From positions 5,341-69,340 of the forward strand of contig CAKTMW010000003.1 of NCBI GenBank assembly GCA_934574095.1: a stretch of 64,000 nt of DNA. The letters run 5' to 3'. The DNA is from an uncultured Oscillospiraceae bacterium (GTDB lineage: Bacteria > Bacillota > Clostridia > Oscillospirales > Oscillospiraceae). How positions within the stretch are numbered: the stretch's first letter is position 1; each line of letters starts with the position of its first letter. Under the pieces are notes generated by a model. That model ran no database searches. It worked only from the letters and a program-made list of their open reading frames with translations, and was not told where the DNA came from. A program made the translations under genes and the position numbers. This document shows positions 17,980-45,187 of this stretch, piece by piece.

Positions 17980-18424
17980 GTTTTCGTCCCTGCGGGGACG
18001 AGGTACTTTTGGCCATTGTCCCAAAAGTACCCAAAAAGACAACCAGAAACCCAGGTTTCTGGACTTCCTGCACGCTGTCCCTTTTACAAATTTGATACCG
18101 TATACCACGCGTTCACAGTACATGGTAGATATCGTTATGTATGACGCATCGACTTTCTTCTTGCGCCGCTGCCGCTCATACGGTGCGACAGTAGACACAG
18201 AAGCGTTGTTCGGCGTAGGCATCAGCGGCAGCGGCGCAGGAGCAAAAGCGATCCTTTTAACGAAACGAAAAAGGAAATTCTGCGTGAACGTGTGGCAGGC
18301 AGTTACAAATCTGTACGCACGATAGCGCGCCCGGAGGTGAAGGAACCGGAGGTTCTTTCCGGTGCTTTTGCCTACTTTTGCCACTGTTGGCAAAAGTAGG
18401 TCGCGCCGGGGCGCGAAACACTCC
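17980..18424. repeat. Family E compound inverted repeat, full copy (E2)
   Basis: About 445 bases separating dnaD from dnaC. The left end TTTTCGTCCCTGCGGGGACG and GTACTTTTGG/CCAAAAGTAC hairpin mirror the right end (CTACTTTTGCC/GGCAAAAGTAG, GCGCGAAA). The centre has GCCGCTGCCGCT facing AGCGGCAGCGGCGC. The whole unit is therefore two similar halves head to head. No coding potential. Confidence 0.75.
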
Positions 18425-40028: not shown

Positions 40029-40585
40029 TTTCGCGCTCCGGCGCGACCTACTTTTGTCAACAGTGACAAAAGTAGGCAAAAGCACCGGAAGGAACCAATG
40101 GTTTCTTCACTTCCTTGCGCGATACACTTTATACTGGATTGTAATTGCCTGCCGCACGTTCACGTGAGGTTTCCTCTTTCGTTTCGTAAAAGGATCGTCT
40201 CTGCACCTGCGCCGCTGCCGCTGAATATTACGCCGAAGAACCATATGCGTCTACCGTGCGGGCCGATGTGGGCATCGGCCCCTACGGAGTTCTATCGTAC
40301 CCTTTCGTAGGGCGGGGCCAATGTGCCCCGCCGCATAGTAAACGCAGCGGGTACGGTAACCATTCGTAGGGGCGGGGTTCTACCCCGCCCGCATGATAAT
40401 CACAACAGATTCGTTATACCGTTGTAGGGGCGGGCGACTCTGCCCGCCCTATCGGTAAACGCAGATTGTTCTTGCCCTGTCATTGCGAACCAGCGCGCAC
40501 ACTGGTGTGGCAATCCGTTTCTCCTTTTGTGAAAGCAGGATGCGGATTCCCACGTCGGCCCGCTGGGCCTCCTCGCAATGACACA
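40029..40585. repeat. Family E half copy (E6), family A units and a family C unit
   Basis: The E left half (TTTCGCGCTCCGGCGCGACC, ACTTTTGTC/GACAAAAGT, centre CGCCGCTGCCGCTG at 40210-40223) breaks into A units from about 40258. A C unit (TGTCATTGCGAACCAGCGCG ... CTCGCAATGACA) ends just before the nadE promoter. No gene. Confidence 0.75.
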
Positions 40586-42104: not shown

Positions 42105-42133
42105 TTGTCTTTCCCGCCGGTATGTGCTATGCT
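42105..42133 (+). promoter_or_regulatory. Promoter of the radical SAM operon
   Basis: TTGTCT (42105-42110), 17 bases, TATGCT (42128-42133), 35 bases before the start codon. Confidence 0.65.
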
Positions 42134-42168
42134 GGGGACGGGAGCGCTGCGCTTCCAAGGAGGAATCT

Positions 42169-43548
42169 ATGAAACATATGACATTCCGCGAACGGCGCTA
42201 CCGCCGGGCACACCTGGACTGTGTGCGCCACATCACGCTGGACCCCAAAGGCCCCGGCGTGGTACGCATCCATATGATCCCGCCCCGGGACGAGACACCG
42301 GCGGCGCCCTTTCTGCTGCTGCTCAACGGCGCGCAGCTGGTGCCGCTGAATCTCAGCTGGGCCATCATGCTGGCCAATCTGATGGATCAGCTGCAAGCCT
42401 ACGAGGGGCAGGATCTGGCGGAGGATCAGTGGGAGGCCCTGCTGACGGCGGCGGTGGAGGAGACTCACCGCACCTATCCCCGCACCAAACGGCAGACGCT
42501 GGCCTCCGACCTGCACCTGATGCTGACCAGTCTGGTCGCCATCGCTCAGGGACGCGAGCCGGAGGCGGAGGTGGGGCTTCTCTCGCTGTCGGACTACGCG
42601 CCGGAGATGACCGCGCCCCACCGGATGGATCTGATGGTCAGCGCCATGGAGAAGGATGGCGGGTGGCACTGCAACCAGAAGTGCCTGCACTGCTACGCGG
42701 CGGGACAGCCTATGGGCGAGACGCCGGAGCTATCCACCGAGCAGTGGAAAACCGCACTGGCGCTTCTCCGCAAGGCCAACATTCCCCAGGTGACCTTCAC
42801 CGGCGGCGAGCCCACGTTGCGGAGCGATCTGGTGGAGCTGGTGCAGGCGGCGGAGTGGTTCGTCACCCGGCTGAACACCAACGGCCGCTTGCTGACGCCG
42901 GAGCTGTGCGCGGGACTCTATGACGCCAGCCTTGACAGCGTACAGGTGACGCTGTACAGCGCCGAGGGCAACATCCACAACCAGCTGGTAGGCACCAACG
43001 GCTTCAACGACACGGTGCAGGGCATCCGCCACGCGGTGGAGGCCGGGCTGATCGTGTCGGTGAACACGCCGCTTTGCTCCCTGAACACCCACTATGCCGA
43101 GACACTGCGATTCGCCCACAGTCTGGGGGTGCGGTACGCCACCTGCTCCGGGCTGATCCCCTCCGGCAGCGCCTGCGGACAGGAGAGCCGGGCCACCGCC
43201 CTGACCCCGGAGCAGCTGACGGACATTCTCCGTCAGGCGGTAGACACGGCAGAAGAGCTGGGCATGGAGCTGGACTTCACCTCCCCCGGCTGGCTGGAGG
43301 AGGAGACGCTGCGCTCTCTCGGCCTGAATCTGATCCCCAGCTGCGGCGCGTGCCTTTCCAACATGGCGGTAACGCCGGACGGCAAGGTGGTGCCCTGCCA
43401 GAGCTGGCTGTCGGACGAGCCGCTGGGCGACCTGCTCCATGACGACTGGGCGGACATCTGGAACAGTCCCCGCTGCGCTGCCATCCGGGCGGAGAGCGCC
43501 AAGCTGGAACACATCTGCCAGCTAAAGGGAAAGGAGGCGGCGGAATGA
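42169..43548 (+). CDS. Radical SAM/SPASM protein, putative peptide maturase
   Basis: This 459-residue protein starts at ATG 42169 behind CAAGGAGG. Residues 1-160 form an N-terminal domain with a hydrophobic core (PFLLLLNGAQLVPLNLSWAI) that could be a leader-recognition (RRE/PqqD-like) fold; this is an inference. The radical SAM core has Cys168-x3-Cys172-x2-Cys175 (CNQKCLHCY) and the GGEP-type motif TFTGGEPTLRSDL. The SPASM-like end has Cys392, 395, 410, 436 and 450 (CGACLSNMAVTPDGKVVPC) for auxiliary iron-sulfur clusters. It overlaps the next gene by four bases (ATGA). Such enzymes make thioether or carbon cross-links in peptides, so the Cys-rich tail of the next protein is the likely substrate. 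Confidence 0.85.
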   Translation: MKHMTFRERRYRRAHLDCVRHITLDPKGPGVVRIHMIPPRDETPAAPFLLLLNGAQLVPLNLSWAIMLANLMDQLQAYEGQDLAEDQWEALLTAAVEETHRTYPRTKRQTLASDLHLMLTSLVAIAQGREPEAEVGLLSLSDYAPEMTAPHRMDLMVSAMEKDGGWHCNQKCLHCYAAGQPMGETPELSTEQWKTALALLRKANIPQVTFTGGEPTLRSDLVELVQAAEWFVTRLNTNGRLLTPELCAGLYDASLDSVQVTLYSAEGNIHNQLVGTNGFNDTVQGIRHAVEAGLIVSVNTPLCSLNTHYAETLRFAHSLGVRYATCSGLIPSGSACGQESRATALTPEQLTDILRQAVDTAEELGMELDFTSPGWLEEETLRSLGLNLIPSCGACLSNMAVTPDGKVVPCQSWLSDEPLGDLLHDDWADIWNSPRCAAIRAESAKLEHICQLKGKEAAE

Positions 43549-44636
43549 AAAAGCTGTTGACCCTGCTGGCGGCGCTGGCCGTTACGCTGGTGCTGGCCGT
43601 GACCGCGTGGGCGGATTACGACTACATCGACCGCTACGACGTGACCGTCACCCCCGACACCGACGACGGCAGCCTGAGCATCACCGTGTCCATGGACTGG
43701 ACGCCGCTGGAGGAGCTGCCCTACGGGCAGGAGCTGAAGATCGGCATTCCCAACGGCTCTCTCCGGGAGGAGACGGCTCTGACGGACAACATTGAGCGGC
43801 TGACATACGACAACAGCTACATGTACGTGTATTTTGACCGGGCCTACAACGCGGACGAGACATTTACCTTCGCCTTCTCGTGGGTGCAGGAGTTCATGTA
43901 CACGCTGGATGGCGATGCGGTGTCCTACGACTACACCCCAGGCTGGTTCGACGAGGCGCAGATCGGCGTGATGACCCTGACCTGGAACGACCCGGCGGGG
44001 GTCGAGGGCGATTACAGCGCCACCGCCAATCCGCTGGGAACGCAGGAGCAGCACGACGGCGTTATCCTGACGGCCTACGGCGTGGACTACGGCAAGACCA
44101 TGACCATCAACGTCCGGTACGACAGCTGGCCTACCGTGCTGGATCAGGCCTACAGCGCCGACAACATGCCTGTTGACTACGTGGACTACGACGACTGGTA
44201 CGACGAGGACGAGGACACAAGCATGGCTGCCCTGTTCCTGACGCTGATCATCACCATCTTCATCGTTTGGGCGGTGGTGTGGATCCTCCGGGAGCTGGGC
44301 GACGGCTACGCCGGCGGCTTCGGTACCCGGTATGTGTTCGTCAACCATCTCTGGTACCCTGCCGGGCCTGACGGCAAGCCCCGTCCCGGCAGCGTGGGCA
44401 CCAAGACGCGGCCCCGCCCGCCCCGCAGCGGCGGTGGCGGCTTTGGCGGCGGAAGCCGGGGCGGCGGGTTTAGCGGCGGCGGCTTCGGCGGCGGGGGACA
44501 CTGTGCCTGCGCCAGCAGCTGCGCCTGTGCCTGTGCCTGCGCCTGTGCCGGCGGCGGCCGCGCCGGATGCAGCGCCAAGAATCTTTACGGCGCGGTGAAG
44601 CTGAGCCGGGAGGTAACGGAACGGTTGGAAGAATAA
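43545..44636 (+). CDS. Membrane-anchored protein with Gly-rich and Cys-Ala repeat tail, candidate modified substrate
   Basis: The 363-residue protein has a signal peptide (1-23, cleavage after AWA), an extracellular acidic beta-rich domain (24-226), one membrane helix (about 227-248, MAALFLTLIITIFIVWAVVW) and a cytosolic tail. An acidic stretch precedes the helix and basic residues follow it, which supports C-in topology. The tail is Pro/Arg then Gly-rich (290-318: GGGGFGGGSRGGGFSGGG) and ends with eight Cys. These are at 320, 322, 326, 328, 330, 332, 334 and 342, mostly alternating with Ala, before a charged end. The tail faces the compartment where the radical SAM enzyme works. Function is unknown; alternatives are metal binding or a secretion-dependent scaffold. 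Confidence 0.7.
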   Translation: MKKLLTLLAALAVTLVLAVTAWADYDYIDRYDVTVTPDTDDGSLSITVSMDWTPLEELPYGQELKIGIPNGSLREETALTDNIERLTYDNSYMYVYFDRAYNADETFTFAFSWVQEFMYTLDGDAVSYDYTPGWFDEAQIGVMTLTWNDPAGVEGDYSATANPLGTQEQHDGVILTAYGVDYGKTMTINVRYDSWPTVLDQAYSADNMPVDYVDYDDWYDEDEDTSMAALFLTLIITIFIVWAVVWILRELGDGYAGGFGTRYVFVNHLWYPAGPDGKPRPGSVGTKTRPRPPRSGGGGFGGGSRGGGFSGGGFGGGGHCACASSCACACACACAGGGRAGCSAKNLYGAVKLSREVTERLEE

Positions 44637-44652: not shown

Positions 44653-45187
44653 GTTTCGCGCTTCCGAGCGCGACCTACTTTTGTCAACAGTGACAAAAGT
44701 AGGCAAAAACACCGGAAGGAACCTCCGGTTCCTTCACCTCCCGGCGCGCTATACGATGTACGGAATTGTCATTGCATACCGCACGTTCACGTGAGATGTT
44801 CTTTTTCGATTCGATAAAAGGATCGTCTCTGCATCGGCGCCGCTGCCGCTGATGCCAACGCCGAACAGCGCTTCAGTGTCTACCGTTGAGATTGGGAGCG
44901 GCAGCGGCGCAAGAAGAAAGTCGATGCGTCATACAAAACAATAACATCCGTGTTTCGTGAACGCGTGGCATAAGGCATCATATTTGTACACGGTATAGCG
45001 TGCGCGGATTCTTAAACCGCAGGTTTAAGTGGCGTTCTTGGTTACTTTTGCCGTCGGGACGTTAAGAAAATATGCCAGTGGCATATTTTTAGTCTCCGCT
45101 CTCGGCGGCTATGCCGCCGTAGCAGCCGCTGTGTTTACACAGCGTGATTGGGCAAAAGTAACTCGCGCCGGAGCGCGAAATTCTCCT
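44653..45187. repeat. Family E full copy with G module in the right arm (E7)
   Basis: The left end TTTCGCGCTTCCGAGCGCGA with ACTTTTGTC/GACAAAAGT hairpin mirrors the right end GGGCAAAAGTAACTCGCGCC and GAGCGCGAAA. The centre is CGCCGCTGCCGCT / AGCGGCAGCGGCGC. Between TTACTTTTGCC and its partner sits a G module (AAATATGCC-AGT-GGCATATTT, CGGCGGCTATGCCGCCG). Confidence 0.75.

What the first reader, a model, noticed from the sequence alone, without database searches (positions are those of the whole stretch)
42105..44636. Radical SAM/SPASM enzyme translationally coupled to a membrane protein with a cytosolic Gly-rich, Cys-Ala repeat tail
Seen directly: the two genes overlap by four bases behind one promoter. 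The first encodes a CxxxCxxC radical SAM core (Cys168/172/175) with five SPASM-region cysteines. The second encodes a signal peptide, external domain, one membrane helix and a tail with eight cysteines in 23 residues, seven of them alternating with Ala. Known: SPASM radical SAM enzymes install thioether or C-C links in peptides (sactipeptides, ranthipeptides, others). Inference: the tail is the substrate. Acidic residues before and basic residues after the helix put the tail in the cytoplasm, where the enzyme is. Unlike usual RiPPs the target is a large anchored protein and no protease or exporter is adjacent, so the product would stay in the membrane. I cannot assign it to a named class.
Basis: partly seen in the sequence, partly recalled or inferred. 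Interest (0 to 1): 0.85.

Follow-up and report, generated by a model that had tools for sequence, protein, structure and literature searches.

The report
Radical SAM enzyme, cysteine-repeat membrane tail
A two-gene unit from a gut-type bacterium pairs a radical enzyme with a membrane protein whose inner tail is a cysteine-alanine repeat, and the same pairing recurs in distant bacteria and archaea, so it looks like an undescribed way of chemically modifying a protein that stays in the membrane.

Summary
In detail: a radical SAM/SPASM gene (42169-43548) overlaps by four bases the gene (43545-44636) for a signal peptide / ectodomain / one-helix protein whose eight cysteines all lie in a 23-residue C-terminal stretch. 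No NCBIfam or Pfam model names either protein at its cut-off, and open-access text searches showed no description.

The interpretation survives the genomic tests its author named. Starting from the enzyme in eight genome samples, 109 genomes carry this enzyme family: 88 have a Cys-repeat-tailed protein in the same gene cluster, 6 elsewhere in the assembly, 9 are cut by a contig end, 6 have none found. Tails come in two kinds, (Cys-Ala)n and (Cys-His-Ser-Ala)n, and the enzyme tree separates them with one change. The system spans Clostridia, several other bacterial phyla, and Thermoplasmatota and Asgard archaea; outside Clostridia it often adds a pseudo-enzyme, a methyltransferase and a small membrane protein.

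Best reading: the enzyme modifies the cytosolic tail of a protein that stays membrane-anchored. Thioether cross-links are the likeliest chemistry, but no chemistry or function is shown. New variant of a known kind (RiPP-type radical SAM maturation).

The parts
42169..43548 (+). Radical SAM/SPASM enzyme, 459 aa
   Evidence: ORF with Shine-Dalgarno AAGGAGG; PF04055 67.5 bits and PF13186 41.8 bits, both above Pfam cut-off; AlphaFold2 pLDDT 92.8
42226..42546 (+). N-terminal RRE-like domain, residues 20-126 (four strands, then three helices)
   Evidence: Model strands and helices; SkfB and SuiB align over it; profile A5 matches A4 (hhalign probability 96); A4 members match PqqD and the profile matches RREs TfuB1/TbiB1
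42670..42693 (+). CxxxCxxC motif, Cys168/172/175
   Evidence: invariant in A2, whose rows were chosen to hold the motif
43342..43521 (+). SPASM region with Cys392, 395, 410, 436, 450
   Evidence: PF13186; C392, C410 and C450 invariant in A2
43545..43548 (+). ATGA overlap of stop and start codons
43545..44636 (+). Membrane protein with Cys-repeat tail, 363 aa (putative substrate)
   Evidence: ORF; homologues
43545..43613 (+). Signal peptide / N-terminal hydrophobic helix
   Evidence: Hydropathy segment at residues 4-22, helix 2-18 in model
43614..44144 (+). External beta-sandwich domain, DUF2207-like
44229..44288 (+). Transmembrane helix, residues about 229-248
   Evidence: Hydropathy; net charge -9 in the 20 residues before, 0 in the 20 after
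44430..44498 (+). Gly-rich linker, residues 296-318
   Evidence: Sequence; pLDDT under 50 in the model
44499..44573 (+). Cys-Ala tail HCACASSCACACACACAGGGRAGCS

Best explanation
The enzyme is a RiPP-type radical SAM/SPASM maturase that binds the membrane protein in the cytosol through its N-terminal RRE and modifies the Cys-repeat tail; the product stays attached to the membrane. Shown by computation: the pairing, the RRE, the tail's conservation, and two tail classes that the enzyme tree follows. Inferred: that the tail is the substrate (about 0.85). Inferred more weakly: the reaction is cysteine thioether formation, S to the alpha or beta carbon of residues in the repeat (about 0.5), because the closest solved relative by fold and by sequence is the sactisynthase SkfB. 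The proposed function, a cytosolic metal- or redox-active Cys array coupled to the external domain, is a guess (about 0.3).
Against: No chemistry was tested. Of 16 genomes found through the tail, 3 (G008, G012, G013) have no enzyme at E 1e-40; G012's contig is a 6.5 kb fragment, but G013's tail gene lies inside a 489 kb contig beside arginine-biosynthesis genes (gene names from my reading). Six Asgard enzymes have no tail found though their contigs continue (G954, G910, G885, G904, G962, G900). G869 has a tail but no enzyme hit at 1e-50. The thioether guess rests on relatedness: SPASM enzymes recalled to make C-C bonds, oxidise Cys or epimerise share this fold (SuiB, anSME, EpeE).
Confidence: 0.62

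Rival explanations
1. The unmodified Cys (or Cys/His) repeat is a metal-binding or Fe-S-receiving array, and the radical SAM protein helps build or insert the metal site without changing the peptide.
For: Alternating Cys, and Cys-His in the CHSA class, suit thiolate/imidazole ligation; zinc ribbons occur in some tail proteins and, weakly, in the small membrane protein of the cluster.
Against: The enzyme has an RRE, a module of peptide maturases; its closest fold is a sactisynthase; a methyltransferase is often in the cluster outside Clostridia.
Confidence: 0.17
2. The tail is modified, but not by thioethers: C-C linkage, epimerisation, Cys oxidation (formylglycine-like) or methyl-related chemistry.
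For: SuiB, anSME and EpeE are also good fold matches (their chemistries are recalled); a class I methyltransferase is part of many clusters outside Clostridia; Ala is a constant neighbour of Cys in both tail classes.
Against: Best structural and PDB sequence match is SkfB; Cys is the residue common to both repeats in every unit.
Confidence: 0.3
3. The tail is the recognition handle, and the enzyme modifies another part of the membrane protein or another substrate.
For: RRE enzymes bind one region and modify another (recalled); some Asgard enzymes have no tail gene nearby.
Against: The tail is the conserved part while the rest diverges (mean column identity 15%, though most rows there were chosen by the tail pattern); enzyme clade and tail class go together.
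Confidence: 0.08
4. Chance low-complexity sequence or a DNA repeat expansion next to an unrelated gene.
For: The tail is Gly/Cys/Ala-rich; 9 of the 119 genome-scan loci are chance matches by my reading.
Against: Peptide fixed while third codon positions vary; same unit in bacteria and archaea; 0 of 20000 shuffles.
Confidence: 0.01

Closest known systems
SkfB / AlbA-type sactipeptide maturases (RRE + radical SAM + SPASM)
   Same: Domain order and fold; SkfB is the best solved relative; RRE at the N-terminus
   Different: Their substrates are small exported peptides (recalled); here the partner is a 363-aa one-helix membrane protein with a C-terminal tail, and I saw no protease or exporter adjacent; score for the SkfB model 63.5 bits against a cut-off of 300
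His-Xaa-Ser (Hxs) and ACGX systems of NCBIfam
   Same: Radical SAM enzymes paired with a short tandem repeat (the repeats are recalled; models TIGR03977 and TIGR04340)
   Different: Scores far below cut-off: window enzyme 58.9 of 267.9 for HxsC; CHSA enzyme L291 109.6 of 267.9 for HxsC and 101.4 of 400 for ACGX
TvgA/TvgB poly-cyclopropylglycine RiPP (PMC9062424, passages read)
   Same: Radical SAM enzyme acting on a tandem-repeat core; the passages also mention an Asp-Cys repeat peptide next to a radical SAM gene, product unknown
   Different: Separate precursor peptide with TVGG repeats and transporter genes; the passages I saw name no membrane-anchored substrate
DUF2207 membrane proteins (e.g. 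S. mutans SMU.243, PMC10457818, passages read)
   Same: Large external N-terminus, internal C-terminus rich in Gly and Ser; weak PF09972 matches in relatives
   Different: Below the Pfam cut-off (16.6-18.8 of 24.4 bits); the passages I saw mention no Cys repeat and no radical SAM partner

Membership tests
RRE-bearing radical SAM/SPASM peptide maturase | Radical SAM core with CxxxCxxC | tested here: met
   PF04055 67.5 bits, cut-off 29.5; Cys168/172/175
RRE-bearing radical SAM/SPASM peptide maturase | SPASM domain | tested here: met
   PF13186 41.8 bits, cut-off 21.5
RRE-bearing radical SAM/SPASM peptide maturase | N-terminal RRE (PqqD-like) | tested here: met
   Fold; 14 of 21 related N-termini match PqqD at E up to 1, best 3.1e-7; A5 vs A4 probability 96; L291 enzyme 25.4 bits, cut-off 23.4. 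The window's own enzyme gave no PqqD match
RRE-bearing radical SAM/SPASM peptide maturase | Genetic linkage to a substrate with a conserved core | tested here: met
   88 of 109 genomes in the same cluster (calls listed in the Full report section)
Sactipeptides / ranthipeptides | Thioether cross-links in the product | not testable with these tools
   Needs mass spectrometry
Sactipeptides / ranthipeptides | Small precursor peptide with protease and exporter genes | tested here: not met
   Partner is 363 aa with signal peptide and one TM helix; flanking ORFs read as hisS, aspS, nadE, a ribosome-hibernation-factor-like gene and glyS (names from my reading, no family search)
DUF2207 (PF09972) | Pfam match above the gathering score | tested here: not met
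   No match for the window protein; three relatives 16.6-18.8 bits, cut-off 24.4
His-Xaa-Ser system | HxsC model TIGR03977 above cut-off | tested here: not met
   58.9 of 267.9 bits
ACGX system | TIGR04340 above cut-off | tested here: inconclusive
   CHSA enzymes 87.2 (L285) and 101.4 (L291) of 400 bits; for the window enzyme the model is not among the 25 best of 61 listed, so no score was seen

The most novel reading that the evidence does not exclude
An undescribed, inter-domain protein-modification system: RRE-guided radical SAM enzymes (with a pseudo-enzyme partner and a methyltransferase in many lineages) convert the cytosolic Cys-Ala or Cys-His-Ser-Ala repeat tail of DUF2207-like membrane proteins into a covalently rebuilt, permanently membrane-anchored cofactor-like array, common in Asgard archaea and present in gut Clostridia.
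Probability: 0.45. Interest if true: 0.92.

Novelty: new variant of a known kind. Interest (0 to 1): 0.82.

Why it matters
RiPP enzymology mostly concerns small peptides that are cut and exported. If this holds, the same chemistry is used to remodel the tail of a resident membrane protein, in lineages as far apart as gut Clostridia and Asgard archaea (44 of 119 genomes sampled in the phylum of G014), which argues for a housekeeping role and not an antibiotic one. It also gives the widespread but unexplained DUF2207-like architecture a testable biochemical handle, and the naturally paired CA and CHSA enzymes are a ready system for studying how a repeat sequence steers radical chemistry.

Tried and rejected
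Curated names: NCBIfam and Pfam on the window pair, ten tail proteins, ten enzymes, accessory proteins and CHSA members: no listed NCBIfam family reached its cut-off for an enzyme or a tail protein, and Pfam gave only general domains. In some searches only the best 25 families of longer lists were shown; one search was limited to E 1e-20.

My first reading of the ten weak Clostridia hits (L145-L154) as enzymes without tails (checkpoint note) was wrong: my regular expression could not see the CHSA repeat; one search found it in all ten stretches and one search shows it overlapping or touching the enzyme ORF in each (in L154 the open frame with the tail is only 57 aa long). The same happened with L185 and L190.

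Of its 119 loci, one search counted 109 with an in-frame tail in ORFs of 40 aa or more; one search shows that two it left out (L061, L092) are real tails cut off by the stretch, and L072 I judged chance: 110 real, 9 chance by my reading. Searches used 108 (without L061, L092, L072).

Loci without an adjacent enzyme were mostly cut by their 8 kb limit; true exceptions are named in the Against line. In the tree, rows without a tail (12 of 126) were kept but not scored for CA/CHSA; a 380-residue minimum and thinning at 80% identity took 179 enzymes to 126. The 62 enzymes added to the window's in A2 were filtered to hold CxxxCxxC.

Promoter and terminator scan: no promoter hit on the right strand; terminator-like sites not interpreted. 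PDB fold matches absent from the list are not taken as evidence.

Literature: (listings). No paper on this pairing was seen in the listings; the peptide strings HSACHSA, CHSACHS, CACACACAGGGR and CACAGGGRAG gave six papers, all unrelated by title; ACGX with radical SAM gave none. Haft and Basu 2011 is not held. Most subscription papers, and bioRxiv as a library, were not searchable.

Full report
What is there. The window holds a radical SAM/SPASM gene (42169-43548) whose stop codon overlaps the start of a second gene (43545-44636) as ATGA; both have good Shine-Dalgarno sequences. The second protein has a signal peptide, a beta-sandwich external domain, one transmembrane helix, a Gly-rich linker and a tail holding all eight of its cysteines. 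Flanking genes read as ordinary housekeeping genes (hisS, aspS and nadE before; a ribosome-hibernation-factor-like gene and glyS after; names are my reading), so the pair seems to stand alone here. A promoter was not found by the consensus scan.

Conservation of the tail. A protein search scored 7999 candidates and returned 2100 homologues of the membrane protein; the 120 listed are 57-96% identical to it, and 119 of 120 hold HCACASSCACACACACAGGGRAGC exactly. Third codon positions vary while the peptide does not. In a wider alignment of 78 relatives (mean column identity 15%) the invariant columns are the CACACACA-G-G stretch, but most of those rows were chosen by a DNA pattern for that stretch, so this second figure is not independent.

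Reach. By my reading 110 are real tails and 9 chance. By record titles they come from Clostridia, Heimdallarchaeota, Methanomassiliicoccales, other Thermoplasmatota, Methanocella, Chloroflexi, Armatimonadetes, Planctomycetes, Krumholzibacteriia, Aminicenantes and others. Clostridial tails run on past the repeat (GGGRAGCSxKDFY...); most others stop exactly at CACACACAGGGR. In 83 of the 108 loci used a cluster of ORFs that holds the enzymes is present; most others are cut by the 8 kb stretch.

Co-occurrence, starting from the enzyme. To avoid selecting on the tail I searched whole genomes with the enzyme and then looked for tails. 'Same cluster' below means within a few kilobases, with at most the pseudo-enzyme and a gap between (largest seen about 3.7 kb, L272). 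Group names are my reading from the record titles of the centre loci; the tool gives none. Class of G001 (Clostridia), 291 genomes: 15 with a hit at 1e-25. Five are full-length relatives at 428-733 bits, and exactly the same five of 291 hold the Cys-Ala DNA pattern; three have it in the same cluster, in two (G212, G251) it lies on another contig, at a contig end. The other ten hits (98-126 bits) each overlap or touch an ORF with a (Cys-His-Ser-Ala)n tail. Family of G001, 120 genomes: two new enzymes, both with a Cys-Ala tail. Order of G001, 345 genomes: six new, all six with it. Order of G005 (Lachnospirales), 146 genomes: two, both with it. Phylum of G006 (Thermoplasmatota), 145 genomes: ten, all ten with it. 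Phylum of G007 (Chloroflexota), 151 genomes: ten genomes with eleven enzymes, nine with CA tails and two with CHSA tails. Phylum of G014 (Asgard), 119 genomes: 44 enzymes, 30 with a tail in the cluster (18 CA, 12 CHSA), two with a CA tail elsewhere (G898, G877), six cut by contig ends, six none found. Phylum of G011 (Armatimonadota), 121 genomes: 20 enzymes, 15 with it (12 CA including G011, 3 CHSA), two elsewhere (G1354, G1306), three cut by contig ends. Sum: 109 genomes, 88 in the cluster, 6 elsewhere, 9 cut, 6 none. The sums are my own addition of these calls. Thresholds differed (1e-25 to 1e-60), so CHSA-type enzymes will have been missed in the stricter searches. Centre genomes G001, G005, G006, G007, G011 and G014, and at least three others seen (those of L014, L042 and L092), had been found through the tail and are included. 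Genomes are related, so the counts are not independent events.

Controls and exceptions. A CACACA pattern in 50 genomes gave chance matches in many, but real in-frame tails in only 1 (G869) of 34 genomes without an enzyme hit, and in 4 of 16 enzyme-bearing genomes where no tail had been seen beside the enzyme. This pattern cannot see CHSA tails. Conversely, of 16 genomes found through the tail, 13 have the enzyme at E 1e-40 and three do not (G008, G012, G013). G013 is an orphan by this test: its tail gene lies well inside a large contig, with no CxxxCxxC protein among the ORFs listed around it.

Two tail classes, one enzyme tree. A FastTree of 126 enzymes (from 179, thinned at 80% identity) needs one change to separate CA-tail from CHSA-tail enzymes, with 12 rows without a tail left unscored. 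The enzyme's lineage therefore predicts the repeat it sits beside, which is what a substrate relationship would give.

Accessory parts. Outside Clostridia the cluster often holds a second protein related to the enzyme that has lost CxxxCxxC (five examined, more), a class I methyltransferase (a cluster in 21 of 108 loci; three members examined are Methyltransf_11) and a small membrane protein (9 of 108 loci; three members examined have weak zinc-ribbon matches below cut-off). The clostridial form is the minimal one: enzyme plus one or two tail proteins.

Topology. In 89 tail proteins with an internal helix, net charge after the helix exceeds that before it in 68, equals it in 7 and is less in 14. 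Two of ten tail proteins examined had zinc-ribbon matches between helix and tail, one of them above Pfam's cut-off. A published DUF2207 protein is described as having an external N-terminus and an internal Gly/Ser-rich C-terminus (PMC10457818, passages). The tail is thus most likely cytosolic, where the enzyme is.

Mechanism. The best-supported model: the tail protein is inserted in the membrane; the cytosolic enzyme docks by its RRE and rebuilds the Cys repeat; the product is not cut off or exported. Pairing, RRE, conservation and class matching are computed results; substrate identity is inferred; thioether chemistry and a metal/redox role are weaker inferences.

Novelty. No NCBIfam release 20.0 or Pfam model that was listed names the enzyme or the tail protein at its cut-off, beyond the general radical SAM, SPASM, PqqD and zinc-ribbon domains, and the text searches listed in Tried and rejected showed no description, within an open-access library only. 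The enzyme type and RRE logic are known; a resident membrane protein as substrate, the two repeat classes, the pseudo-enzyme and the reach into Asgard archaea are, as far as I could search, not described.

Noticed in passing
L145-L154 (class Clostridia genomes), L285-L287, 12 stretches among L289-L305, L185, L190: A second tail class, (Cys-His-Ser-Ala)n, beside enzymes of the same family; in the 291 Clostridia genomes it was commoner (10) than Cys-Ala (5). It became part of the finding.
   Followed up: partly
L031:3680-5047, L073:3584-5140, L118:1873-3420, L004:1670-2974, L050:1800-3509: Pseudo-radical-SAM paralogues that keep the RRE-like N-terminus and late SPASM cysteines but lack CxxxCxxC, encoded next to the tail gene.
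   Followed up: partly
[not shown]
   Followed up: no
9265, 15164, 15490, 19475, 19529, 22803, 22858, 27570, 40368, 41815, 51773: Eleven copies of a palindromic element AGGGGCGGGGTTCTACCCCGCCCG (up to 3 mismatches; none in 100 shuffles), one about 330 bases upstream of the enzyme gene.
   Followed up: no
18372-18390 (-), 40057-40075, 44684-44702: Repeated stretch TCAACAGTGACAAAAGTAG (up to 2 mismatches), one copy just behind the tail gene.
   Followed up: no
L197:8632-9447 (G013): Orphan Cys-Ala tail protein with no enzyme hit at 1e-40 in its genome: a natural test of whether the tail works unmodified.
   Followed up: partly
L217 (G945), L219 (G917): Asgard enzyme genes of this family with in-frame TAG codons (1 and 2); assembly errors or codon reassignment not examined.
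   Followed up: no
L123 (G011:C369): A second, different Cys-Ala-tailed protein on another contig of the same genome, ending FGGGFSCACACAGCACACACAGGGR, with no recognised partner on its 6.6 kb contig (L192).
   Followed up: no
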